Notes under the pieces: generated by a model
What the model saw: the letters and a program-made list of their open reading frames with translations, nothing else
What the model was told of the DNA's origin: nothing
The model's database searches: none
Source: a virus
Virus record (IMG/VR): IMGVR_UViG_3300023179_000434
Coordinates: 1 to 27,088 of that record
Direction: 5' to 3' (one strand)
Length of the DNA: 27,088 bases
Made by a program: the position numbers and the translations under genes
In this document: positions 522-27,088 of the stretch, one piece after another
How positions within the stretch are numbered: the stretch's first letter is position 1
Layout of the letters: every line of letters begins with the position of its first letter

Positions 522-1151
522 TTATATAGATGCTACAGAGAGATATTCATCGATAATTGCCTCCACCGCTTTACCTTTTTTAGATTCACCAGTGAGCTCC
601 ATTACCTTCTGTAAGCGGTCCAGATAATCAATGCTAATTGGGATAGTAATATACTTCTGTTCCTTAGCTTTACGATTAGCACCAAAGCTACGGAAGATAC
701 TAAAGACATCAGGAGCAAGGGTCAACTCATTAATAGCTTTCTTACTTTCATCGGCTAGACCGGTCTTAGCATAGCCATATCGTCCCATTTTCTCACAAGT
801 AAGACCAAAGCGCTTTGCAGCTTCGGCAAATGTCTTTTTATGGTATTGGTTGGAAGTACAATCGTCAATACCATGCTGATGATTCCAAAGGTGACTACAT
901 TCATGTAACAATGTTTCTAAAATATCGTCATTAGATCTTTTAAAATATTCAGCACTGATATTAATTTCATGAAAAGATTTGTCAGATTTGTCTTTCCACG
1001 CATTTTGTGCAAACCAACCATATGCTTTTTTTCTGCCTACTGATTGAATAGTAATAACAGCATCCTTAAGTTCACCATTGGCGAAAACTTTATTAAAATG
1101 GTTATATGCATCTGTCAAGGCTGTATGTGCTTGTATAAATTCTTGAATCAT
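522..1151 (-). CDS. SprT-like zinc metalloprotease
   Basis: Predicted 209-aa SprT-family metallopeptidase. The zinc site is LLHECSHLWN, with H83 and H87 as ligands and E84 as the catalytic base in the HExxH motif. The SprT/Spartan family cleaves DNA-protein crosslinks in eukaryotes; the role of phage members is not established. The region after the catalytic domain (about residues 120-209) includes a basic helical segment ending in IDEYLSVASI, which could bind DNA or a partner. I place the start at the ATG at 1151 (MIQEFIQAHT). An upstream TTG at 1184 would put the start inside the 14-bp inverted repeat. It is divergent from the HNH gene and from the 1937 gene. Confidence 0.8.
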   Translation of the reverse strand: MIQEFIQAHTALTDAYNHFNKVFANGELKDAVITIQSVGRKKAYGWFAQNAWKDKSDKSFHEINISAEYFKRSNDDILETLLHECSHLWNHQHGIDDCTSNQYHKKTFAEAAKRFGLTCEKMGRYGYAKTGLADESKKAINELTLAPDVFSIFRSFGANRKAKEQKYITIPISIDYLDRLQKVMELTGESKKGKAVEAIIDEYLSVASI

Positions 1152-1174
1152 CACACAAAATATAATAGGTTTAA

Positions 1175-1890
1175 ATATAAGCAACTAAATAAATGTGCCA
1201 CCCTAAGTATTTCTATGGAATTCAAAACATGCTTTAAATGTAAAGACAGTAAAGAAATAATAAACTTTAACAAATGCAAGAGTAATAAAGATGGATTGCA
1301 AAGAAAATGCAAATCATGCGAAAAGAAAAATCATAATGAAAGATATAAAGATCTTGATAAAAGAACGGATAAAATAACTAGAGCATGCATTTATAATAAA
1401 CTCAAAAGGGATAATGAATCAGTGGACGACAGACGCATCAGGTTGGCTAAAGCTAAAAAATGGTATGAAGATAATAAAGAACAACAGAAAATATACAGGA
1501 AATGCTGGTACAAAGAAAATCACGACTATTATATTAAAAGATCAAAGGTACCTATTAATAAATTAATACAAAGATGCAGAACACAAACACGAAACGCATT
1601 TAAAAAGAAAAGTGGTAATGGGTATCTCAAAAAACATACTAAAGAATTATTAGGCGTTTCGTGTTGGGGTGAAGCTAAAACACATATGGAAAATTTATTC
1701 ACTGGTGGTATGTGTTGGGAAAACATGCATTTATGGCATATAGACCATATAAAACCCATACACTCCTTTGATCTAACTGACCCTATTCAATTTGAAACAT
1801 GCTTCAATATAAAAAATCTACAACCATTATGGATAGCTGATAATTTAAGCAAAGGATGCAAATACCCATATCATTATTAGTTGCTTATAT
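1175..1890. mobile_element. HNH gene cassette bounded by 14-bp inverted repeats
   Basis: ATATAAGCAACTAA (1175-1188) and TTAGTTGCTTATAT (1877-1890) are exact inverted copies. They bracket the HNH endonuclease gene almost perfectly; the gene's TAG stop at 1878-1880 lies within the right copy. They could be ends of an inserted cassette, or duplicated regulatory sequence of two divergent promoters separated by the insertion. No target-site duplication was found, and homing endonuclease genes do not normally carry terminal repeats, so mobility is an inference. Confidence 0.4.
1215..1880 (+). CDS. HNH endonuclease, probable free-standing homing endonuclease
   Basis: A 221-aa protein starting at the ATG at 1215 (MEFKTCFKCKDSKEI). 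The N-terminus has paired cysteines (CFKCK and CKSC) that look like a zinc finger. The middle is very Lys-rich and probably binds DNA. The C-terminal HNH domain contains WHIDHIKPIH and FNIKNLQPLW, the usual metal-binding His/Asp and Asn positions. This arrangement is typical of phage HNH homing enzymes. It lies between the divergent SprT-like and 1937 genes, in what would otherwise be their shared promoter region. The open frame extends further upstream to 1044, but that part is antisense to SprT and is not credible coding. Confidence 0.85.
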   Translation: MEFKTCFKCKDSKEIINFNKCKSNKDGLQRKCKSCEKKNHNERYKDLDKRTDKITRACIYNKLKRDNESVDDRRIRLAKAKKWYEDNKEQQKIYRKCWYKENHDYYIKRSKVPINKLIQRCRTQTRNAFKKKSGNGYLKKHTKELLGVSCWGEAKTHMENLFTGGMCWENMHLWHIDHIKPIHSFDLTDPIQFETCFNIKNLQPLWIADNLSKGCKYPYHY

Positions 1891-4507: not shown

Positions 4508-5031
4508 GGGTTTTCAAAAATAAAACAGATACAAAAAAGGCACATAAGAATAATATACCAGAGCTATACGACTTTGGTACCACATGTCCTGAAGGTTATG
4601 AAGACATTGGTGATATGGTATTTAAACCACTTTCTGAAAAACGAAATGGTATTAGCATCTATTCAGCTTTAGTATTTCGACCATCCAAATCTCAAAATTC
4701 TGCCAACAAAGTAGAATTATTTCATTTAGCCAGAGACCGTCACGAAACGCGTCAGTATAAAGAAGGCAATCACTTACCAGAAATCCATGATGCAAGATAT
4801 AAGAAAGATTTCTTTAATGCTACAGTAGACAAGACAGTAGAGACACTTCTTAAAGCAAACACAGATACTATACTTTATATCAGTTCAAAGTCACCCTTTA
4901 ATACAACTGTTATTGAAGCAGCTAAAAGAGCCAATCCCAATATAAAAGCCACTAATAGTATAGATAGTATTATCTTAAAACATCCTTACAGTGAAATAAT
5001 AAAATTGGTTGATAATAATCCCCAAATGTAG
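4498..5031 (+). CDS. Unknown 177-aa phage protein
   Basis: A soluble protein beginning MVLRVFKNKTDTKKAHKN. It has a mixed alpha/beta pattern with a segment DTILYISSKSPFNTTVIEA that looks like a strand-loop-helix unit of a Rossmann-like fold, but no glycine-rich nucleotide loop is present. I do not recognise a family. It sits alone between the terminator at 4374 and the leader of the kinase/phosphatase gene. Confidence 0.75.
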   Translation: MVLRVFKNKTDTKKAHKNNIPELYDFGTTCPEGYEDIGDMVFKPLSEKRNGISIYSALVFRPSKSQNSANKVELFHLARDRHETRQYKEGNHLPEIHDARYKKDFFNATVDKTVETLLKANTDTILYISSKSPFNTTVIEAAKRANPNIKATNSIDSIILKHPYSEIIKLVDNNPQM

Positions 5032-5037
5032 TTATAA

Positions 5038-5109
5038 ACTGGGTTGTAGGAATTAAGCTGCCCGTTATTAAATAAGTGTTGAGTTAGTATTTAACCCGCA
5101 GTAAACTGC
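5038..5109 (+). promoter_or_regulatory. Inverted repeats in leader of the kinase/phosphatase gene
   Basis: The 81-nt gap before 5113 contains a long-range pairing ACTGGGTT (5038-5045) with AACCCGCAGT (5093-5102, one extra base) and a compact hairpin GCAGT-AA-ACTGC (5098-5109) ending three bases before the ATG. The two pairings are mutually exclusive at 5098-5102, which could form a switch near the start codon. No Shine-Dalgarno is visible. Function inferred from position only. Confidence 0.3.
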
Positions 5110-5112
5110 TAC

Positions 5113-6021
5113 ATGTTAAAACAGAAAATTATTCTTACTAAAGGTTTGCCAGGTTCTGGAAAATCCACATGGGCAAAGGACTTCGTGGCTAAATCTAATG
5201 GAAAAGCTAAGCGTGTCAATAAAGACGATCTTAGAGCTATGATAGATAATAGTGTTTACTCCAAGACTAATGAGAAAATGATCTTAGATGTAAGAGACAC
5301 TCTCGTTGATTTGTTCCTTACTAAAGGCATAGAAACGATCATCATTGATGATACTAATTTTGAACCTAAGCATTTTGAACGAATGATAGAAATTAAAGAG
5401 CAGCAGAGATATAAATACAGTGGTGAAAAGTATCTTACAACAGATATCACTCTTGAATATAAAGACTTCCTTGGCGTGCCTTTAGAAGAATGTATCCAAC
5501 GCGATGCCAAAAGGGCTAACCCTGTAGGCGAAAAAGTAATCAGAGATATGTACAATCGTTATATTGCTCCTACCATTCCGCGAAATATCGGAAGCAATAA
5601 AAAAGGCAATACTATCATTGTTGATGTAGATGGCACCATTGCTCATAATAATGGCCATCGTGGCTGGTTTGAATGGTCTAAAGTAGGAGACGATGAACCT
5701 ATTATTCCTGTTATCAATCTTGTTCAAATGTATTCCGATAATGGCTATCGTGTAATTGCAGTCTCTGCCAGAGAAGGTACTGCTGAATGCAGAGAGCTTA
5801 CAAAACAATGGCTGTGGAAATATAATGTTCCATTTGATGAGTTGTATATGAGACCGGAAAAGGATTTTCGTAAAGATGACATCATCAAAGAGGAAATTTA
5901 TAACACATACATCAAAGGCAAATATGATATAGAAGCTGTCATTGACGATCGTGATGGTCCTGTCTCTTTTTGGAGATCAGTAGGGCTTAGGTGTTACCAA
6001 GTCGCTCCCGGAAACTTCTGA
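5113..6021 (+). CDS. pseT: Polynucleotide 5'-kinase / 3'-phosphatase (T4 PseT-like)
   Basis: A 302-aa protein, the same length as T4 PseT (301 aa) and with the same two domains. The N-terminal kinase has the P-loop GLPGSGKST (11-19), a general-base Asp in VNKDDL (36-40) and the lid Arg cluster CIQRDAKR. The C-terminal HAD-type phosphatase has DVDGT (171-175) and a late acidic site AVIDDRDG. In T4 the enzyme repairs tRNA cut by the host anticodon nuclease: it removes the 2',3'-cyclic phosphate and phosphorylates the 5'-OH so that RNA ligase can seal. No RNA ligase gene is in this window. All key residues appear intact. Confidence 0.95.
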   Translation: MLKQKIILTKGLPGSGKSTWAKDFVAKSNGKAKRVNKDDLRAMIDNSVYSKTNEKMILDVRDTLVDLFLTKGIETIIIDDTNFEPKHFERMIEIKEQQRYKYSGEKYLTTDITLEYKDFLGVPLEECIQRDAKRANPVGEKVIRDMYNRYIAPTIPRNIGSNKKGNTIIVDVDGTIAHNNGHRGWFEWSKVGDDEPIIPVINLVQMYSDNGYRVIAVSAREGTAECRELTKQWLWKYNVPFDELYMRPEKDFRKDDIIKEEIYNTYIKGKYDIEAVIDDRDGPVSFWRSVGLRCYQVAPGNF

Positions 6022-6032
6022 TATAAAATACC

Positions 6033-6215
6033 ATGACAAATACAGAAACAAATCTTCTTAATAATGAAGAACATAGAGAAGCTATGCAATCAGATGTCAC
6101 TAACAAAACCAAAGAAATGTTAAAGATACATGGTGATGAATATCTTCGTAAATATGAAGTTATTGAAGAAGTAATGCAAAAGCTTACAGATAACGGCGTA
6201 CATGTTGTTTTATGA
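6033..6215 (+). CDS. Unknown 60-aa phage protein
   Basis: An acidic, helical small protein beginning MTNTETNLLNNEEHREAM. TATAAA (6022-6027) ends 5 nt before the ATG, the same geometry as several other starts here. No recognised motif. Confidence 0.6.
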   Translation: MTNTETNLLNNEEHREAMQSDVTNKTKEMLKIHGDEYLRKYEVIEEVMQKLTDNGVHVVL

Positions 6216-6292
6216 GGATTTCTGCCTACAGCTGTAAGAGGAACGGATAAAGAGATGCCCGTATACTTCCAAAATCTCTCATCATTTATTAA

Positions 6293-6505
6293 ATGGGAAC
6301 AAGGCAAAGCATATTAGAAAGTCAGATTGAAATGTCCTGCCAAAACCATGCATTAATGTTGGCTTTTATGAATCACTTCCGAACATTTAATATGCCAGAA
6401 AAACATACAAATACGGAAGTGATTCATGAATTAGCAGGATATGTACATCATGCGTATAATTGGTTTATGAACGATACACTGCCCCATACATTACCAAATA
6501 TATAG
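6293..6505 (+). CDS. Unknown 70-aa His-rich phage protein
   Basis: Begins MGTRQSILESQIEMSCQNH. It contains seven histidines spread over the chain (including YVHHAYNW), but no clear metal-binding motif. The 6216-6292 gap holds only short frames; one of 20 codons (6255-6317) overlaps the start and is not convincing. Function unknown. Confidence 0.55.
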   Translation: MGTRQSILESQIEMSCQNHALMLAFMNHFRTFNMPEKHTNTEVIHELAGYVHHAYNWFMNDTLPHTLPNI

Positions 6506-6518
6506 ACACATTTAAACA

Positions 6519-6689
6519 ATGAACCAAGAATCTAATACACAAACTATCGAAAGTCTTCAAACTGAAGTAAGATTTCTATATAATGCATTAATGAGAATTC
6601 AGCAAATAGCAGTGGGTGGAAGTTCCGAATATAACTTAGCAGCAGCTGCTTGTAGCGCTTGCTCATTATCTATTAAAATAAGTGACTAG
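6519..6689 (+). CDS. Unknown 56-aa phage protein
   Basis: A short gene from the ATG at 6519 to the TAG at 6687-6689. It begins MNQESNTQTIESLQTEVRFL, a helical amphipathic segment, and ends with an Ala/Cys/Ser-rich stretch. It fills the gap between the 6293 and 6715 genes and has codon use like its neighbours. No function recognised. Confidence 0.55.
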   Translation: MNQESNTQTIESLQTEVRFLYNALMRIQQIAVGGSSEYNLAAAACSACSLSIKISD

Positions 6690-6714: not shown

Positions 6715-7323
6715 ATGAGTAAACGACTTATATTAAAACTAAATGCGGGATTTTTTCCCCTGTCTACAGCACCTTGGGAAGATACTATTGTTAATATCTT
6801 CTCTGAGGCCGCCCATCCGTTAGATATTGTATATACTCAAAACGAAGATGGTAGTTATGATGAAAGCAGTGTTGAATATTTTAATATCATTAAAGACTGG
6901 AAAGAATGGGCAAAGCTGCCTATCAGATCTTGTGATGATTATGTTCATACTACCAGTGGTCCAGTTCGTCTGCCAAGTGTCGTAGTGTGTGGCAAATTCA
7001 ATAGAGTTGTATATAAAACTGTACAATTCCCTACTAAGCATAATATTTTTAAAAGAGATAAATACACCTGTGGTTACACTGGTAAAAAATTACAGAAACA
7101 CGAACTTTCTGTGGATCATATATTACCAGTAAGTCGTGGTGGTCAAAATACATGGGATAATTTAATTACATGCGAAAAGAAAACTAATACATTCAAAGAT
7201 AATAGAACGCCATCAGAATGTGGGCTTAAATTACTTTGGAAACCAGAAAAGCCAAAAAATGGCATGGTCTTTGACGCATTGCGTGAAGATTGGAACATGT
7301 TCTTAGGAAATAAAAATGAATAA
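6715..7323 (+). CDS. HNH nuclease family protein
   Basis: A 202-aa protein. The N-terminal region (LILKLNAGFFPLSTAPWEDT) matches the conserved start of a widespread bacterial and phage HNH family. The C-terminal HNH core is NIFKRDKYTCGYTG, SVDHILPVSRGGQNTWDNL and FKDNRTPSECG. The usual first zinc knuckle CxxCG is here CGYTG, so one Cys is missing, and the metal-binding structural site may be lost. The catalytic DH and the downstream Asn are present. It could act as a genuine nuclease or be a maintained phage accessory protein; nothing around it marks an insertion. It overlaps the next gene by 8 nt. Confidence 0.85.
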   Translation: MSKRLILKLNAGFFPLSTAPWEDTIVNIFSEAAHPLDIVYTQNEDGSYDESSVEYFNIIKDWKEWAKLPIRSCDDYVHTTSGPVRLPSVVVCGKFNRVVYKTVQFPTKHNIFKRDKYTCGYTGKKLQKHELSVDHILPVSRGGQNTWDNLITCEKKTNTFKDNRTPSECGLKLLWKPEKPKNGMVFDALREDWNMFLGNKNE

Positions 7324-16154: not shown

Positions 16155-18344
16155 ATGGAAATAACAGTCAAAAAGAGAAATAATCAGATCGAAAAATTCG
16201 ATGCAGAGAAAGCCAACAGAGTAGTAGAATGGGCAACAAAAAATATCACAGGTGTATCCAGCACAGATATATTAATGAATGCCAATATTAATTTCTACGA
16301 TGGCATCAGCACAAAAGAGATACACGACTCACTGATCAAATCAGCTGAAGGTCTAATTTCATTAGAACACCCAAATTATACCACAGTCACAGCAAGATTG
16401 CTAACCTATGGACTGCGTAAAGAAGTTTGGGGTGGTAATAGACCACCACGTTTAATTGATCACATTAAGAACTGCGTTAATACTGGTGTATATACCCCAG
16501 AACTACTAGACAAATATACAGAAGACGAAATTAACAAGATAGATAAATGGATAGATCATTCATTGGATGAAACTATGTTTGATTTTGCCGGGATGAATCA
16601 TATGATTAAGACTGCATTGGTTCAAGATCGCATTAATAAGAAGATATACGAAACGCCTCAGTTTGCTTTTATCTGTATTGGCATGGTCCACTTTGCGGAT
16701 TATCAATCACCTAAGAAATTAGAATATGTAAGGGACTTTTATCACGCAGTCTCTCATCGTAAGCTTAATATCCCTACCCCTATGCTCACCCGTTGGCGCA
16801 CAAAAGCCAAATCTGGTGCATCGTGCTGTCTTATTCAAGTAGATGATACGGCAGATTCTATTTTTACATCTGCTCATCTCATGGCCAAAGCCACAAGTTT
16901 TGGATATGGTATCGGCCTTGACTTTAGCCGCATCCGTGCTTTAGGTAGTCCAGTAAAAAATGGAGAAACTGTTCATAGTGGTGTAATACCCTATCTCAGA
17001 GTATTCCAGGATGCCATCAAATCCCAACAACAAGGCGGGGCGCGAAGAGGTGCAGGTACCGCAAGCGTAGCTATCTTCCATTTAGAAATTGAAAACATCT
17101 TACAATTAAGGAGTGTTGGTGGAACAGAACAGAGTAGAGTCAGGCATTTAGATTATGCTATTGCTATTTCTAAATTATTTTATGAGAGATGGAATAATGG
17201 AGAAAATATTACACTATTTTCTTACCATGAAGTTCCTGAAGTGTTCGATTCCTTTGGTCTTCCAGAGTTTGATGATTTATATATTGCTGCAGAACAAAAC
17301 CCAAATATTAAATTCAAAAAAAGCATCCCAGCTGATGATATCTTCAATTCTTTAATTAAAGAACGCATTGAAACCAACAGAATTTACATTCTCAACATTG
17401 ATCTTGCCAATATGTATTCACCATGGCTTGATCGTGTACCTATGTCAAATCTATGCATGGAGGTTCTAACACCCGAAATTCCATGCCAATCGTTAAATGA
17501 CCCTAATGGCGAGATCGGCACATGTCTATTAGCAGCTATTAACATGGCAAATATTAAAAATGATGAAGAACATCGTAAATTATGCCATTTAGCCGTTCGC
17601 ATGTTAGATGACATGATCGACAGACAAACCTACTTTGCACCAGCTGCAGAGAAATTTACGAAAAATAAAAGATCATTGGGTATTGGTGTTACTAATTTGG
17701 CTCATTGGTTAGCATCTAAAGAAATGAATCATGATTCGGAGCAAGCACCCAATGCTATAGATGAGTTTATGGAGAAGCAGCAGTACTTTCTTATGGAAGG
17801 TTCTTGGTTGCTTGCAAAGGAAAAAGGTAAAGCACCAGACTGGCATAGATCCAAATACTCACAAGGTGTATCAAAGCTTGATTTGTATAAAAAGGATGTA
17901 GATGAAGTCATAACACGCAAACCCACAATGGATTGGGATACACTCATGAAGAATATTCATAAAGATGGCATGAGAAACATGACACTATCATGTGCTATGC
18001 CATGCGAAAAATGCTTAAAATGGGATACACTAATATATGCTAATAACACTTCCATGAACTTCCATGAAATTTGTGAGATTTTAGGGTTTTCGTGGGAAAA
18101 CATTGAAAGTAATAATATGGTAGGATGGCATCAATCTGACAAATATATTACCATAGAAACTGTAGACGGCCCTATAGATACAAACATGATATATTATAAT
18201 GGTATATCCGAACAAACATTTGACATTGAACTAGAAAATGGTGAAATTATTACAGCAACCAAAGACCATAAATTTCTTACCAAAAACGGATGGAAGAGAG
18301 TAGAAGATTTGGCTGAAGATGATGATATTTTAGAAATTAACTAA
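16155..18344 (+). CDS. nrdA: Ribonucleotide reductase large subunit, N-terminal part fused to N-intein
   Basis: A 729-aa product: residues 1-619 are the N-extein of class Ia NrdA and 620-729 the N-half of a split intein. The N-terminal ATP cone begins MEITVKKRNNQIEKFDAEKA. Active-site residues are intact: Cys224/225 in GASCCLIQ, the thiyl Cys434 and nearby Glu in SNLCMEV, and Cys457 in GTCLLAAIN. The remaining catalytic parts (Tyr-Tyr and C-terminal Cys pair) are on the separate gene at 18457, so this product alone cannot be active. The enzyme reduces ribonucleoside diphosphates to supply dNTPs for phage replication. Break site: after MPCEK, aligned to MPSET of E. coli NrdA. Confidence 0.95.
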   Translation: MEITVKKRNNQIEKFDAEKANRVVEWATKNITGVSSTDILMNANINFYDGISTKEIHDSLIKSAEGLISLEHPNYTTVTARLLTYGLRKEVWGGNRPPRLIDHIKNCVNTGVYTPELLDKYTEDEINKIDKWIDHSLDETMFDFAGMNHMIKTALVQDRINKKIYETPQFAFICIGMVHFADYQSPKKLEYVRDFYHAVSHRKLNIPTPMLTRWRTKAKSGASCCLIQVDDTADSIFTSAHLMAKATSFGYGIGLDFSRIRALGSPVKNGETVHSGVIPYLRVFQDAIKSQQQGGARRGAGTASVAIFHLEIENILQLRSVGGTEQSRVRHLDYAIAISKLFYERWNNGENITLFSYHEVPEVFDSFGLPEFDDLYIAAEQNPNIKFKKSIPADDIFNSLIKERIETNRIYILNIDLANMYSPWLDRVPMSNLCMEVLTPEIPCQSLNDPNGEIGTCLLAAINMANIKNDEEHRKLCHLAVRMLDDMIDRQTYFAPAAEKFTKNKRSLGIGVTNLAHWLASKEMNHDSEQAPNAIDEFMEKQQYFLMEGSWLLAKEKGKAPDWHRSKYSQGVSKLDLYKKDVDEVITRKPTMDWDTLMKNIHKDGMRNMTLSCAMPCEKCLKWDTLIYANNTSMNFHEICEILGFSWENIESNNMVGWHQSDKYITIETVDGPIDTNMIYYNGISEQTFDIELENGEIITATKDHKFLTKNGWKRVEDLAEDDDILEIN
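18012..18341 (+). other. N-half of split intein in NrdA
   Basis: 110 residues from Cys620 to the C-terminus. Block A is CLKWDTLIY, with the nucleophile Cys1 at the splice junction. Block B is EIITATKDHKFLT, with the conserved Thr and His, followed by GWKRVEDLAEDDDIL, the usual strand ending an N-intein. There is no endonuclease insert. With the C-half it makes a mini-intein of 149 aa, the normal size of a HINT domain. All catalytic positions for an active Cys/Ser-type intein are present. Confidence 0.93.
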
Positions 18345-18396
18345 TTATTAGCAATAATGCGTGTAAATTTAGAGTTGATCCCCGCATTAGATAATT
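18343..18396 (+). other. Hairpin at the break between nrdA halves
   Basis: AATTAT (18343-18348) pairs with ATAATT (18391-18396), and TAATGCG (18355-18361) pairs with CGCATTA (18383-18389), with a 6-nt to 1-nt internal loop. It starts in the stop codon of the N-half and hides the ATG at 18357. There is no T-run, so it is not a standard terminator. It may control translation or mRNA processing between the halves. Confidence 0.4.
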
Positions 18397-18485
18397 CAAT
18401 CAAAGGTGCCTGTTGCAGTATTACAAAAGAAAGCCTATTAACGCAGTATTCAAATTATGAAAATCAAGAAAATAACAAAATCTAA
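18357..18485 (+). CDS. Possible 42-aa protein between the nrdA halves
   Basis: ATG 18357 to TAA 18483-18485. The product begins MRVNLELIPALDNSIKGACC and continues with a polar Asn/Gln-rich tail. It overlaps the start of the C-half gene in another frame by 29 nt. It resembles neither an intein block nor a homing endonuclease. It could be a remnant of sequence once present at the break or a coupling peptide. Confidence 0.3.
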   Translation: MRVNLELIPALDNSIKGACCSITKESLLTQYSNYENQENNKI

Positions 18486-18573
18486 TAATTCTCATGCTAC
18501 TTATGATATAGAAATACCGAAAGTGCATTCTTATATTATAAATTCAAATAACAGTAAAATCATAACACATAAT
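18457..18573 (+). other. C-half of split intein in NrdA
   Basis: 39 residues. Block F is ATYDIEIPKVHSYIIN and block G is SKIITHN, ending in the penultimate His and the terminal Asn that cyclises; the +1 extein residue is Ser (18574-18576). The length is that of naturally split C-inteins. The short, basic start MKIKKITK matches the typical interface with an acidic N-half tail (VEDLAEDDDILEIN). Confidence 0.93.
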
Positions 18574-19011
18574 AGTAGCTTAATGCAGAATTCCACTAAT
18601 GGCATTGAACCTATAGTTCAATTATTCCAATTTAAGGATGATCGTCAAGGCTCTGCTGCATGGATAGCTCCTAATATTAAAAAATATGGTAAGTTCTATA
18701 AATCTGCTTATGATTGTACTAATACAGGTATAATCAATTGTGCCGCTGCTGTTACTAAATGGGTTTGCATGGGAGTTTCTACTAACCATTACTACAACTA
18801 CGGCAATTACGAGGATAATAAATTAGAATCTACTGATGTGGCCTATGATATATTAATGTCCTATAAAAGAGGATTGAAGACTTTATACTATGCCAAGAAC
18901 AAACAGGTAATCAATAAGGATACATCGTTAGATAATTCTACTATTACCAGTACATCAAGAGACGATACAAATAATATTGAATCAGCATGCGGAGGGTCTT
19001 GTAGCCTTTGA
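18457..19011 (+). CDS. nrdA: C-intein fused to C-terminal part of ribonucleotide reductase large subunit
   Basis: A 184-aa product: residues 1-39 are the C-half of the intein and 40-184 the C-extein of NrdA. The extein starts SSLMQNSTNGIEP, which continues the E. coli NrdA sequence after MPSET without loss. It holds the paired tyrosines in KTLYYAKN that pass the radical between subunits, and ends in ACGGSCSL, the redox-active Cys pair reduced by glutaredoxin or thioredoxin. Trans-splicing with the upstream product would give 619 + 145 = 764 aa, close to E. coli NrdA (761). It starts at an ATG with no Shine-Dalgarno. Confidence 0.93.
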   Translation: MKIKKITKSNNSHATYDIEIPKVHSYIINSNNSKIITHNSSLMQNSTNGIEPIVQLFQFKDDRQGSAAWIAPNIKKYGKFYKSAYDCTNTGIINCAAAVTKWVCMGVSTNHYYNYGNYEDNKLESTDVAYDILMSYKRGLKTLYYAKNKQVINKDTSLDNSTITSTSRDDTNNIESACGGSCSL

Positions 19012-19859
19012 ACGACCATATAAAAGAATATATAACTAAAAACCTCTACGATTCAAAAGGTAGATTTTCGAGTGGGAGATGGAATAATATAGAACATATA
19101 AGAAAAAGGCATTTTCCCACGTTTGTATTTTTATCAAATGCACTAAACAATGGAATATCTATTTCTGAAAGTATATTTCTTTTATTTAACCCAAAAACAT
19201 TTTGTATAAAATGTGGAAAGCCTACCGAATTTAAAAGTTTTAACGAAGGGTACAGCAAAACATGCAAATCAAAAATCTGCTTATCTTATGCATACGGATT
19301 AAACCCATGTATTCCTACTATTAAAGATAGAATCGCTCTTTCAGAGCGAATGAAAAAACATAACCCAATGTTTAATAAAGAAATCTTAAACAGAAAAATA
19401 CAAACAGAAAAGGATAAAAACGACGGAATATTGTTTATAAACACCGAAATATCAAAACGCAAGTCATTAGACAGTCGTTACGAAATTTACAATACATTTT
19501 CTCCCAAATCACAGATTTTTAAGCCCAAGGATTACATTTTACCTAGTGGCAAAATAGTTAAAGTTCAAGGATATGAACCTTACGCCCTAGATATTCTTTT
19601 TAAAACATACACTGAAGATGATATAGATATATGCGGAAAATCCCATATGTTCTATTATACATTTAAAGGCAAGACTAGAAGATATTTTCCTGACATTTTC
19701 ATTAAAAAAGAGAAAAGATATATTGAGGTCAAATCAATATACACATATAGAAAGTGTCTCCGGCAAAATTTATGTAAAAGGCAAACAATATTAGATCATG
19801 GATTTCTTTTCAGTTTTATGATCATAACTAAACCAAAAAAACATGCTGAGCGTATATAA
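19008..19859 (+). CDS. EDxHD/Vsr-like homing endonuclease
   Basis: A 283-aa protein starting at a TTG at 19008, overlapping the nrdA-C stop (TTGA). An N-terminal region with FCIKCGKPTEF and TCKSKIC is a likely zinc finger. The C-terminal catalytic domain has GYEPYALDIL (Glu), YTEDDIDI (Asp), RRYFPDIFI (Asp) and YIEVKSIYTY (Glu, Lys), the pattern of the Vsr-fold endonucleases associated with split-intein genes in environmental phages. The position normally occupied by His before PD is Arg-Tyr-Phe. It overlaps nrdB by 17 nt. It probably cuts an nrd locus lacking the element, promoting its spread. The TTG start is uncertain because the first in-frame ATG is far inside. Confidence 0.85.
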   Translation: MNDHIKEYITKNLYDSKGRFSSGRWNNIEHIRKRHFPTFVFLSNALNNGISISESIFLLFNPKTFCIKCGKPTEFKSFNEGYSKTCKSKICLSYAYGLNPCIPTIKDRIALSERMKKHNPMFNKEILNRKIQTEKDKNDGILFINTEISKRKSLDSRYEIYNTFSPKSQIFKPKDYILPSGKIVKVQGYEPYALDILFKTYTEDDIDICGKSHMFYYTFKGKTRRYFPDIFIKKEKRYIEVKSIYTYRKCLRQNLCKRQTILDHGFLFSFMIITKPKKHAERI

Positions 19860-20904
19860 TAAAAACGTAGTTAGTAACCAAGACCGTAAAATGTTTCTTG
19901 GTCCAGGATTAAATCTGCAAAGATTTGATACCTTTAAGTATAAGAAATTTTACGACTTATACAAAGAGCAAAAATCTGCTTATTGGGATCCAGAAGAAAT
20001 TGACTTCTCCGGAGAAGCTGCCAAGATTGATACCATGAACCCCACAGAGAAGTGGATTTTTGAGAATAATCTCATGTGGCAGACAGCTACAGACTCAGTA
20101 CTGAGTCGTGGTATTAACAATATTACTCAGTACGTAACATTGCCAGAATTGGAAGCTGCCTGTGGTTACTGGCAATTTTGTGAAATATTGCACAGTGAGT
20201 CATATACCCATGCTCTTAAGGGATTAACCAAAAAACCTGAAGAGTTCTTTGACTCTATCATAACTAATGAAGAGATTAACAAGAGATCAACAGAAACTAC
20301 CAAGGCATTTGATGCTTTGTTGGGAGCTACAGATACCAATATAAAGGATCATATCTTCAAAACAGTATTATCTACACAGATAGCTGAAGGACTAAATTTC
20401 CATGTATCCTTCCTGTTTTCATTCTGGTTTGGTAAGCAAGGAAAAGCCCCGCAAATGGCAAAAATCATCCGCCTTATTAATAAAGATGAAAGTCTTCATG
20501 TTGCTATTACCCAAAATATCATCAAATATTGGAGAATCAATCCTGACGAAGGATTTCAAGACATTTTAAAAGCCAATAGAGACTTGGTATATGAAATGTA
20601 CAAAACTGCAGTTCAGTGCGAGAAAGATTGGGCTAGTTATTTATTTTCAAAGGGCAGCTTAATCGGATTCAATGAATCTAATGTTCATGATTATATTGAA
20701 TGGTTAGCAAATAATCGTTTACATAGTATGGAATATGATAAAATTTTTGAATGTAAAAAGAACCCTATAGGTTCTTGGCTTCTTGAATATCTAGATCCCA
20801 CACTTGCGCAATCAGCCCCTCAAGAACAGAATCTTACAACGTATCAAATGGGCAGTAGAAATAATAATATCGACAAACTAAAACTTCGCGGGATATCATT
20901 ATAG
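19843..20904 (+). CDS. nrdB: Ribonucleotide reductase small subunit
   Basis: A 353-aa class Ia beta subunit. The di-iron ligands are D84 (TATDSVLSRG), E114 and H117 (FCEILHSES), E182 (AEGLNFHVSF), E216 and H219 (KDESLHV). The radical tyrosine is Y121 (SESYTH). All match E. coli NrdB (D84, E115, H118, E204, E238, H241, Y122). It generates the tyrosyl radical used by NrdA. The ATG at 19843 lies inside the end of the homing endonuclease gene, but the N-terminus (KMFLGPGLNLQRFDT) aligns with the family, so the start is sound. Expected partner is the spliced NrdA. Confidence 0.96.
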   Translation: MLSVYNKNVVSNQDRKMFLGPGLNLQRFDTFKYKKFYDLYKEQKSAYWDPEEIDFSGEAAKIDTMNPTEKWIFENNLMWQTATDSVLSRGINNITQYVTLPELEAACGYWQFCEILHSESYTHALKGLTKKPEEFFDSIITNEEINKRSTETTKAFDALLGATDTNIKDHIFKTVLSTQIAEGLNFHVSFLFSFWFGKQGKAPQMAKIIRLINKDESLHVAITQNIIKYWRINPDEGFQDILKANRDLVYEMYKTAVQCEKDWASYLFSKGSLIGFNESNVHDYIEWLANNRLHSMEYDKIFECKKNPIGSWLLEYLDPTLAQSAPQEQNLTTYQMGSRNNNIDKLKLRGISL

Positions 20905-25440: not shown

Positions 25441-26361
25441 TTATAAGCATAAATTAAGCCAATCATCAAACTCACAACAAACACGTTCTCCCGTTAGATC
25501 ATATGGAAGAAAATGATGTGATAGAACGGCAGATGCGTATGATTTACGCGCATCCATATTCGGTGTATTAAATAGATACGCCAACTGAGTAATATCAGTA
25601 TGGCATTCATGTACTGCACCGGAGCCTGTAAATGCACCAGTTCCCAATACAGCTACGGGTAACCCACTTAATGTAGCCTCACTCGCACATGTTGAATTTA
25701 CAGTGACTAGTGCACTACATTGCGGAAGACGTTCAGCAAAACTTTCAGTTACATCAAGTACCCAATTAGGCCGCCAAATACCACCATGATTAAAATTTTT
25801 TCGCTCACTTGGATGAGGGCGAATTAATGTAGGGATATCAGGCAAGTGATGTTTTAACAACCTGAGAGTTTCGGTGACTTTATCTGCAGCTGAGTTTCCA
25901 TAAGGAAATTCTGTATTGAGATTACAATCATTGCGATTTTGTAATGCAACAAGAATAGGCCCATTATCAATACCCCGAAAGCCATATGTCCATCCAAACC
26001 AACGATTAGATACCCACTCAAGCGAGTATCGATAATTATTTTTCCATCTCTGCTGAGTACATAGATTAGAATGAGAAAAGAATCCTGCGCGATCTACAAA
26101 TATACCAGCAGATTGACAAATAAGACTATTCTCTACATATAGGACATTCTGCCCATAGAGTTGCATCCAATTCTGTGGAACGCGACAGTTCCATGCTATT
26201 ACATTATGGTAGTTTTTTATAGCCGCACAATAACCAGAAGTATCAACTGATATATCAACCCATTTTATTGCCACACCGCTAGCCAAAGCCTTTGCATTAA
26301 TCCATTTCCTAAGTTCTGAGTTTAATACTTTAGGCATTACTAAAGCAATAGCTTCGATCAT
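25441..26361 (-). CDS. Capsule-polysaccharide-synthesis-like glycosyltransferase
   Basis: A 306-aa protein with IRPHPSERKNFNHG (about two thirds along) and TVNSTCASEATLSGLPVAVL, hallmarks of the GT-B-like capsular polysaccharide export/synthesis family (Capsule_synth, KpsC/KpsS type). The His-Pro and Ser-x-x-x-Glu positions match the nucleotide-sugar-binding region. The enzyme probably builds a sugar chain, perhaps on a virion protein or to remodel the host surface. It overlaps the methyltransferase by 4 nt. Confidence 0.75.
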   Translation of the reverse strand: MIEAIALVMPKVLNSELRKWINAKALASGVAIKWVDISVDTSGYCAAIKNYHNVIAWNCRVPQNWMQLYGQNVLYVENSLICQSAGIFVDRAGFFSHSNLCTQQRWKNNYRYSLEWVSNRWFGWTYGFRGIDNGPILVALQNRNDCNLNTEFPYGNSAADKVTETLRLLKHHLPDIPTLIRPHPSERKNFNHGGIWRPNWVLDVTESFAERLPQCSALVTVNSTCASEATLSGLPVAVLGTGAFTGSGAVHECHTDITQLAYLFNTPNMDARKSYASAVLSHHFLPYDLTGERVCCEFDDWLNLCL

Positions 26362-26954
26362 ATTATCTGTATAAGTACCTGTTGGTGTTTCTCATTCCTA
26401 GCTAAAACATTAAAATTAACATTATTAATATTAACCCACTCAAGAAAAGCGTGAAACTCATGATCCTCATAACCGGCATAATTATATAGTTCATCAAAAA
26501 GAAGTAATGGTTTCTCTGCTAGTATCCATTCACTTAAAGCATTCAAAATAGTTTGTGTCGAGCTGCCAAGATCACAGTCAAAATGAATTCCTTCTAGCTT
26601 TCGAATAGGCTCATGACTCATAGACATGAAATGAGGAAGTGTTTCATTAAACCAACCAGGAATAATACGCACATTGGCGCGCCATTTGATCTTACTTACA
26701 TCTGTTTTAAAATGTCCTGCAGGATGTCCAGATATCCATGCTTCAGGAAGACCATCAAATGAATCAAATCCTGTAAACAATGCATTCAGGCGGACTTCAG
26801 CCATATAGTTAATCGACCGCACATTCCATACACCAAACTCAAAAGCATGACCACTCGTAATTCCTGTAAGGTATTGGTGCCATATTTCTCCTCTTGTTTT
26901 ACATTTCATGGGAGCATTCATAATAAGATCTCGTAATTCGTAAAAAGTCATCAT
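26358..26954 (-). CDS. SAM-dependent methyltransferase, TylF-like
   Basis: A 198-aa class I methyltransferase. SAM motif I is AFEFGVWNVRSINYM, motif II GFDSFDGLPEAW, and IHFDCDLGSSTQTIL carries the metal/acceptor Asp residues of the TylF/MycF sugar O-methyltransferase family. It may O-methylate a sugar added by the adjacent glycosyltransferases. Two consecutive ATGs (26954, 26951) are possible; the TGA stop of the upstream Pro-Thr-repeat gene overlaps them, implying coupled expression. Confidence 0.8.
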   Translation of the reverse strand: MMTFYELRDLIMNAPMKCKTRGEIWHQYLTGITSGHAFEFGVWNVRSINYMAEVRLNALFTGFDSFDGLPEAWISGHPAGHFKTDVSKIKWRANVRIIPGWFNETLPHFMSMSHEPIRKLEGIHFDCDLGSSTQTILNALSEWILAEKPLLLFDELYNYAGYEDHEFHAFLEWVNINNVNFNVLARNEKHQQVLIQII

Positions 26955-27088
26955 GGCGTTGGAGTAGGCGTTGGCGTAGGCGTTGGAGTAGGCGTTGGCG
27001 TTGGAGTAGGCGTTGGCGTAGGCGTAGGCGTAGGCGTAGGCGTTGGCGTAGGCGTAGGCGTAGGCGTTGGCGTAGGCGGAGGCGGAGG
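26951..27088 (-). CDS. C-terminal end of a protein with a Pro-Thr repeat (partial)
   Basis: Reading from the right edge, the minus strand is open for 45 codons: five Pro, then alternating Thr-Pro to the end, closed by TGA at 26953-26951. The frame is uninterrupted and its stop overlaps the methyltransferase ATG, supporting a genuine coding end. Codons alternate CCT/CCA and ACG/ACT. The rest of the gene lies beyond the window, so its identity is unknown; similar repeat tails occur in virion surface proteins. Confidence 0.6.
   Translation of the reverse strand, partial: PPPPPTPTPTPTPTPTPTPTPTPTPTPTPTPTPTPTPTPTPTPTP
26955..27088. repeat. Hexanucleotide tandem repeat to the window edge
   Basis: More than 130 bases made of GGCGTW-type 6-bp units (plus-strand view: GGCGTT, GGCGTA, GGAGTA), ending in GGCGGA copies at the edge. 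All units keep the minus-strand Pro-Thr frame; point differences are nearly all at third codon positions. It is GC-rich compared with the rest of the window. Such tracts vary in copy number and may be misassembled. Confidence 0.9.

What the first reader, a model, noticed from the sequence alone, without database searches (positions are those of the whole stretch)
18012..18573. Split intein breaking nrdA into two genes
nrdA is encoded as two cistrons. The first ends with a 110-aa N-intein (Cys1 in CLKWDT, TxxH block B), the second begins with a 39-aa C-intein ending in THN followed by Ser+1. Joining the exteins gives a 764-aa NrdA that aligns across the break (MPCEK/SSLMQNSTNG against E. coli MPSET/SSQISNATNG). 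So an essential nucleotide-metabolism enzyme depends on protein trans-splicing. Split inteins of this 'fractured gene' type are known from environmental phage sequences; whether this particular intein is described cannot be told here. The sequence between blocks A and B looks unlike the well-known NrdA and NrdJ split inteins I can recall.
Basis: partly seen in the sequence, partly recalled or inferred. Interest (0 to 1): 0.85.

Follow-up and report, generated by a model that had tools for sequence, protein, structure and literature searches.

The report
Split intein cutting phage nrdA apart
An uncultured phage makes its DNA-building-block enzyme (ribonucleotide reductase) as two separate proteins that a split intein very probably stitches together, and the gap between the two genes still holds the eroded tail of the homing endonuclease gene that usually lies in the break.

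Summary
nrdA is two cistrons: 619 aa of NrdA plus a 110-aa N-intein (stop 18342-18344), then a 39-aa C-intein plus 145 aa of NrdA. A phage whose N-extein is 93.5% identical carries the same gene uninterrupted (MPCEK|SSLMQNSTNG). Seven one-piece mini-inteins occur in RNR genes at the equivalent site. The window's halves align to their two ends, and the joint AlphaFold model is an intein (pLDDT 97). Relatives split in the same place exclude a sequencing error. The insertion falls between the equivalents of E. coli NrdA Thr624 and Ser625, so activity without splicing is unlikely.

(1) In sister phages the break holds a complete HNH-like endonuclease gene; here about 40 codons of its 3' end survive (18345-18485). 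(2) Intein halves plus endonuclease moved as a block between related phages (90-93% DNA identity against 71-80% in the adjoining exteins). (3) Across 39 related inteins, one-piece, split-with-endonuclease and split-without-endonuclease forms interchange freely.

This is a new member of the known 'fractured gene' split-intein kind (Dassa et al. 2009), caught after endonuclease loss. Trans-splicing is inferred; nothing was tested at the bench.

The parts
16155..18011 (+). N-extein: NrdA residues 1-619 (ATP cone, all-alpha domain, most of the barrel), ending MPCEK
   Evidence: Pfam PF03477, PF02867 positions 1-390; 93.5% identical to uninterrupted NrdA of L007
18012..18341 (+). N-intein, 110 aa; Cys1 nucleophile (CLKWDT), block B T-x-x-H (TKDH)
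   Evidence: TIGR01445 26.3 bits, over cut-off; alignment A2 with C1, T83, H86 conserved in 9-10 of 10; dN/dS 0.085-0.09 against L003/L009
18342..18344 (+). Stop codon (TAA) ending the first nrdA cistron
   Evidence: same stop position in L003, L005, L009
18345..18485 (+). Eroded 3' end of the in-break homing endonuclease gene: 46 open codons, LLAIMRVNLELIPALDNSIKGACCSITKESLLTQYSNYENQENNKI*, running 29 nt past the C-intein start as the intact gene does in L003/L009
   Evidence: In-register match to the last ~40 residues of the 362-aa protein of L003/L009; anchored score 34 against a maximum of 28 in 20,000 shuffles; identical +29 stop/start overlap
18457..18573 (+). C-intein, 39 aa (MKIKKITK...HSY...THN), last residues His-Asn
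   Evidence: TIGR01443 22.9 bits, over cut-off; alignment A1, H38 N39 S40 invariant
18574..19011 (+). C-extein: rest of NrdA, beginning SSLMQNSTNG (Ser+1), ending in the Cys pair CGGSCSL; stop 19009-19011
   Evidence: PF02867 positions 389-522; first codon 18574-18576 corresponds to E. coli NrdA Ser625 (via L007)
19008..19859 (+). Second, different endonuclease-like gene (DUF7487, PD...E-x-K motif YFPDIFIKKEKRYIEVKS) in the nrdA/nrdB junction; start codon uncertain
   Evidence: PF24308 E=7e-26; absent from the nrdA/nrdB junction of L003, L005, L007, L013; relatives annotated 'endonuclease' or HJR/Vsr-family nuclease
19843..20904 (+). nrdB (class Ia small subunit), partner of NrdA
   Evidence: PF00268 E=1.5e-48

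Best explanation
The phage NrdA is made as two polypeptides. The N-intein at the end of the first and the C-intein at the start of the second associate into one HINT (intein) domain. Cys1, the block-B Thr/His, the penultimate His and terminal Asn, and Ser+1 then carry out class-1 protein trans-splicing, which releases the intein and leaves a seamless 764-aa NrdA that works with NrdB. The split intein is the splicing half of a mobile cassette whose other half is an endonuclease gene in the break. Here that gene has been deleted except for its last ~40 codons, so the split intein is immobile unless another nuclease helps it. Shown: gene structure, conserved catalytic residues, an uninterrupted allele, the fold of the one-piece homologue, purifying selection, block transfer in sister phages, the endonuclease remnant. 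Inferred: that splicing happens, that NrdA activity depends on it, and that the missing gene was an active homing endonuclease.
For: Intein-specific models over cut-off on both halves. Uninterrupted NrdA in L007 with exactly the predicted join, and in L013. One-piece inteins in RNR genes of L043, L057, L068, L026, L071, L074 and L087; the window's halves align to the two ends of one-piece forms. AlphaFold2 of L043 with the window's halves in the alignment: pLDDT 97.4, pTM 0.90, matching solved inteins (gp41-1 TM 0.83, NpuDnaE, Mxe GyrA). dN/dS 0.035-0.09 on intein halves in most comparisons where dS is not saturated (0.22 for the C-intein against L003). L003/L009: intein and endonuclease 90-93% nt identity against 71-80% in adjoining exteins. 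Complete endonuclease gene in the break of L003/L009 and its remnant here. Insertion between the equivalents of E. coli Thr624 and Ser625, in what I recall as the substrate-phosphate-binding loop.
Against: No splicing experiment; no expression or proteome data. The C-half has no recognisable Shine-Dalgarno sequence (upstream 'cagtattcaaatt'), so its translation is not explained. The upstream-only part of the endonuclease remnant is weak without the positional anchor (3 of 5000 shuffles reach its local score). The window is a 27-kb fragment from one assembly.
Confidence: 0.9

Rival explanations
1. Genes-in-pieces without splicing, as in Aeromonas phage Aeh1, where mobE splits nrdA and the two proteins assemble into an active enzyme without an intein. 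The intein halves would then be dead tags.
For: The precedent is real (PMC3653736; PMC2988022). The gene order (nrdA piece, endonuclease remnant, nrdA piece) looks the same.
Against: Unlike Aeh1 as described in those papers, both pieces carry intein halves with every catalytic residue kept, under purifying selection. The cut lies between the equivalents of Thr624 and Ser625, and 149 aa of intein would sit at the active site.
Confidence: 0.06
2. A one-piece intein with an internal endonuclease, broken by a sequencing or assembly error.
For: Single metagenomic contig; one-piece relatives exist.
Against: The same stop and the same internal start recur in L003, L005 and L009 from other samples. 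The two halves are in different frames with 112 bp between, and no intact endonuclease lies in the gap.
Confidence: 0.01
3. nrdA is a decaying pseudogene and the phage relies on host or other reductases, as suggested for some Campylobacter phages.
For: Degenerating intein-laden nrdA is reported in Campylobacter phages (PMC3653736).
Against: Both reading frames are intact, the C-terminal Cys pair is kept, nrdB is intact and adjacent, and dN/dS of the exteins is low where measurable (0.096-0.105 for the C-extein).
Confidence: 0.03
4. An addition rather than an alternative: the 18345-18485 ORF is a functional short leader that couples translation of the C-half to the first cistron, not just a remnant.
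For: It is open over all 37 codons upstream of the C-intein ATG (3% of shuffles), has an ATG 12 nt after the N-half stop and overlaps the C-half start by 29 nt. Endonuclease genes overlap the C-intein start in most loci that have one.
Against: Comparable remnants in L022 and L048 are open but have no ATG/GTG/TTG start, so they cannot act as leaders.
Confidence: 0.25

Closest known systems
'Fractured gene' split inteins of environmental phages (Dassa et al. [quoted passage not shown]
   Same: RNR large-subunit gene broken into two cistrons by a split intein, with a free endonuclease gene in the break in the close relatives
   Different: Here the endonuclease is reduced to a ~40-codon stub; the in-break gene of its sisters is HNH-like, while the 2009 paper as I recall it described a Vsr-like family (that type is seen here, by eye, in L014/L015). 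Sequence identity with the 2009 inteins could not be tested.
NrdJ-1 and gp41-1 split inteins (PDB 8ubs, 6qaz)
   Same: Same family of fold (gp41-1 is a Foldseek match), similar small size, naturally split
   Different: Sequence similarity is marginal (E about 0.025 for the family profile), so not the same intein
Klebsiella phage KP13-7 nrdA (OP617745)
   Same: Cultured phage with the same intein family at the same NrdA site (CQSWDN...|SHN), split, with an HNH-like gene in the break
   Different: N-intein only 27-28% identical; endonuclease intact; nrdA broken twice; annotated as hypothetical proteins and nrdA_2 without mention of inteins
Aeromonas phage Aeh1 nrdA/mobE and T4 mobE
   Same: Endonuclease genes breaking nrdA (Aeh1) or sitting between nrdA and nrdB (T4); Aeh1 mobE has its ribosome-binding site held in an RNA hairpin (PMC2988022)
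   Different: As described there, no intein; the pieces work without splicing

Membership tests
Split intein (class 1) | N-terminal Cys/Ser nucleophile and block B TxxH | tested here: met
   C1 and T83/H86 of the N-intein; TIGR01445 over cut-off
Split intein (class 1) | C-terminal His-Asn followed by Ser/Thr/Cys+1 | tested here: met
   THN|S; TIGR01443 over cut-off; H38 N39 S40 invariant
Split intein (class 1) | Two halves on separate polypeptides making one HINT fold | tested here: met
   Separate ORFs; they align to both ends of one-piece homologues whose joint-alignment model is a HINT fold. The window's own pair was not modelled as a complex.
Split intein (class 1) | Trans-splicing activity | not testable with these tools
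   Needs co-expression
Fractured-gene arrangement | Host gene intact once the intein is removed; empty alleles exist | tested here: met
   L007 and L013 have uninterrupted nrdA
Fractured-gene arrangement | Free-standing homing endonuclease gene between the two halves | tested here: not met
   Only a 3' remnant in the window; complete gene or full-length gap in L003, L004, L008, L009, L011, L012. The window is an endonuclease-less derivative, not a full example.
Aeh1-type genes-in-pieces RNR | Pieces without an intein | tested here: not met
   Both pieces carry conserved intein halves
HNH homing endonuclease (the remnant and its intact sisters) | HNH catalytic motif | tested here: inconclusive
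   Sister protein has YHVDH...VVNLE...N by eye, but no Pfam match at E<0.05; the window remnant keeps only the last part
DUF7487 (PF24308), gene at 19008-19859 | Profile match over the curated cut-off | tested here: met
   91.9 bits against 27; nuclease activity not tested

The most novel reading that the evidence does not exclude
Fractured genes run their own homing cycle: at one RNR site a single intein family moves repeatedly between one-piece, split-with-endonuclease and split-without-endonuclease states. Endonuclease genes are lost from the 5' side (start region and body), often leaving 3' stubs in the break, so the gene stays split and dependent on trans-splicing with no mobile element left. 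The window is one of at least five such losses.
Probability: 0.6. Interest if true: 0.55.

Novelty: new member of a known kind. Interest (0 to 1): 0.42.

Why it matters
The split intein itself is one more of a known sort, useful mainly as a new sequence for protein-ligation work. The set around it is worth more. Close relatives show the same intein with an intact endonuclease, with an eroded one, with none, and the same site empty. That gives a series in which to ask how a gene becomes permanently split, whether split inteins can return to one-piece form, and why a nucleotide-metabolism enzyme stays dependent on trans-splicing after the selfish gene has gone.

Tried and rejected
Sequencing error making the stop: rejected from relatives. 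Aeh1-type pieces without splicing: judged unlikely. First attempt to score the endonuclease remnant used a wrong frame and was redone. DNA-level alignment of the gap with L003 found only the overlap with the C-intein coding region, so the remnant rests on protein similarity and register. Single-sequence AlphaFold of the one-piece relative failed (pLDDT 36.5); the alignment version succeeded. A search for other phages near the window's first ORF found only the relatives already known, and its second endonuclease has no close relative. The idea that the remnant is kept as a translational leader is open: two parallel remnants lack start codons. Dassa 2009 and Carvajal-Vallejos 2012 are not in the paper library, so identity to named inteins was not tested.

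Full report
What was claimed and whether it is there. The coordinates are exact. The first ORF (16155-18344, 729 aa) is 619 aa of NrdA followed by 110 aa beginning CLKWDT and ending DDDILEIN*. The second (18457-19011, 184 aa) is 39 aa ending IITHN followed by 145 aa of NrdA beginning SSLMQNSTNG. NCBIfam's intein models pass their curated cut-offs on both halves (26.3 against 24.5 and 22.9 against 15.6 bits), and the RNR profile PF02867 runs 1-390 in the first and 389-522 in the second, with no loss at the junction. The record is a 27,088-bp virus fragment.

Empty and filled alleles. Scans of 2.9 million viral contigs with the second ORF found relatives. L007 carries nrdA as one 753-aa ORF reading ...CAMPCEKSSLMQNSTNG..., its N-extein 93.5% identical to the window's; L013 (84%) is uninterrupted too. 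That fixes both intein boundaries by comparison alone. L003, L004, L008, L009, L011 and L012 carry the same split intein with about 1.1 kb between the halves; in L003 and L009, read in full, it is filled by a 362-aa ORF. L005 has the same halves, in different frames, with 13 bp between stop and start. The N-intein stop and the C-intein start fall at the same places in all, so the split is biological.

Family and fold. An alignment-based scan gave 39 distinct related inteins, all at corresponding sites in class Ia NrdA-type or class II NrdJ-type proteins: 18 split with an endonuclease-sized ORF in the break, 14 split without, 7 in one piece. Alignments keep Cys1, the T-x-x-H of block B, His-Asn and Ser/Thr+1. 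The window's halves align to the two ends of the one-piece inteins. AlphaFold2 on the L043 one-piece intein, with the window's halves among the 38 aligned sequences, gave pLDDT 97.4 and pTM 0.90; its best matches among solved structures are inteins, with gp41-1 at TM 0.83 by target length. The family profile matches DnaB and DnaE inteins by sequence and NrdJ-1 only marginally (E 0.025). Cultured Klebsiella phage KP13-7 has a member at the same NrdA site, with no intein named in its annotation.

Why splicing is probably required. L007 NrdA aligns without gaps to E. coli NrdA through the junction; the numbering (DW at 598-599) places the insertion between Thr624 and Ser625. From my knowledge of the E. 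coli R1-substrate complexes (not tested here), these residues bind the substrate diphosphate. An unspliced protein would have 149 extra residues at the active site. Both intein halves are under purifying selection: dN/dS 0.085-0.09 for the N-intein against L003/L009, 0.22 for the C-intein against L003, and 0.035-0.05 between L003 and L009; several comparisons are saturated at synonymous sites. This and the kept catalytic residues make the Aeh1 arrangement (pieces that work without an intein; PMC3653736, PMC2988022) unlikely.

The endonuclease that was here. In the window the 112-bp gap holds, in one frame, open codons from 18345 to a stop ending at 18485. They line up, without gaps and anchored by the shared overlap with the C-intein start, with the last ~40 residues of the 362-aa in-break protein of L003 and L009: VNLELIPALDNSIKGACCSITKESLLTQYSNYENQENNKI against VNLEILERSKNCSKQSRSSISIDELYRLYNEYENQKNNKI. 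The last eight residues overlap C-intein coding sequence and were left out of the test. The rest scores 34 in fixed register against a maximum of 28 in 20,000 shuffles; as a free local alignment it is weaker (3 of 5000 shuffles). KP13-7's in-break protein ends NLQIIPAKENIAKNYRSNMDINDLLRIYNENRKN, a look-alike from another phage. The 362-aa protein has an HNH-like pattern by eye (YHVDH...NLE...N) but no Pfam match. Parallel stubs occur in L022 (66 codons, a near-copy of the tail of the L019 gene), L051 (tail of the L052 gene) and L048 (62 codons), and L005 and L050 have lost almost everything. Five sister pairs, one with and one without the endonuclease, are separated by only 0.01-0.10 substitutions per site. 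Loss rather than gain is shown where a stub remains; for L005 and L050 it is inferred.

Mobility. Between L003 and L009 the N-intein, endonuclease and C-intein are 93, 91 and 90% identical at DNA level while the adjoining exteins are 71-80%, with sharp edges. Their synonymous divergence is lower too (pS 0.29-0.42 against 0.66-0.70). The simplest reading is that intein halves and endonuclease moved together, by homing, after the two nrdA genes had diverged. The window's intein shows no such recent exchange with L003.

Tree of states. On a tree of 39 inteins the window groups with L003, L005 and L008. One-piece and split forms are sisters in supported places (L057 with L014, 100; L074 with L102, 100; L071 with L088, 94). 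Parsimony needs 7 changes between one-piece and split and 17 among the three states, no fewer than for shuffled labels. The states are labile; the tree does not tell the direction of each change.

Control of the endonuclease. In L003 and L009 the endonuclease start codon lies in a perfect 18-bp hairpin (z -6.3 and -7.3). Hairpins with z below -4 over the start region occur in 7 of 17 in-break endonuclease genes against 4 of 91 other gene starts in the same loci (Fisher p = 1.6e-4), and at least one of those four looks like another endonuclease gene in a break. The related pairs among the 17 are not independent, so the p-value is optimistic. T4-type phages hide the ribosome-binding sites of I-TevI, segB and Aeh1 mobE in this way (PMC2988022). 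The window lost the hairpin with the gene.

The second endonuclease gene. Between nrdA and nrdB the window has a 283-aa ORF matching DUF7487 (PF24308, E 7e-26) with a PD...E-x-K motif. It is absent from the same junction in L003, L005, L007 and L013. Distant relatives in phage records are called endonuclease or HJR/Vsr-family nucleases. Its place is that of T4 mobE. Whether it now helps the orphaned split intein to move is an untested idea.

Verdict. Almost certainly a working split intein in nrdA, new as a sequence in these searches but of a known kind, in a late stage after endonuclease loss. What stands out is the comparative series, not the single locus.

Noticed in passing
L003:2889-2960, L009:2888-2960, and the breaks of L044, L045, L052, L054, L061, L102: Start codons of in-break endonuclease genes of several sequence types lie in strong RNA hairpins of mostly unrelated sequence; z below -4 in 7 of 17 against 4 of 91 control starts. 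L102's hairpin contains TATAAATA, the T4 late-promoter consensus as I recall it.
   Followed up: partly
L025 (Klebsiella phage KP13-7) 565-4558; L016: nrdA appears broken twice by two split inteins; in KP13-7 the first break holds a GIY-YIG-like gene and the second an HNH-like gene. The deposited annotation names no intein.
   Followed up: partly
L014 versus L057; L015 versus L043: Close relatives carry the same intein either split with a Vsr-like endonuclease gene or in one piece with a 4-7-residue linker, so splitting or re-fusion has happened recently.
   Followed up: partly
window 19008-19859: DUF7487 PD-(D/E)xK-like gene at the nrdA/nrdB junction, not found there in the relatives read; PF24308 is listed as of unknown function.
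   Followed up: partly
window 1044-1880 and 6715-7323: Further HNH / endonuclease VII-like free-standing ORFs (for the first; SVDHILPVSRGG...N by eye for the second).
   Followed up: no
window 26955-27088 (minus strand): Low-complexity repeat translating as AYANAYAYAN... at the contig end, upstream of the ORF at 26358-26954; may be a real repeat or an assembly edge.
   Followed up: no
L115 (Candidatus Cloacimonadota MAG contig) 4920-6569: The same split-intein family with an in-break endonuclease-sized gene in an RNR gene of a contig binned as bacterial; may be a phage contig.
   Followed up: no
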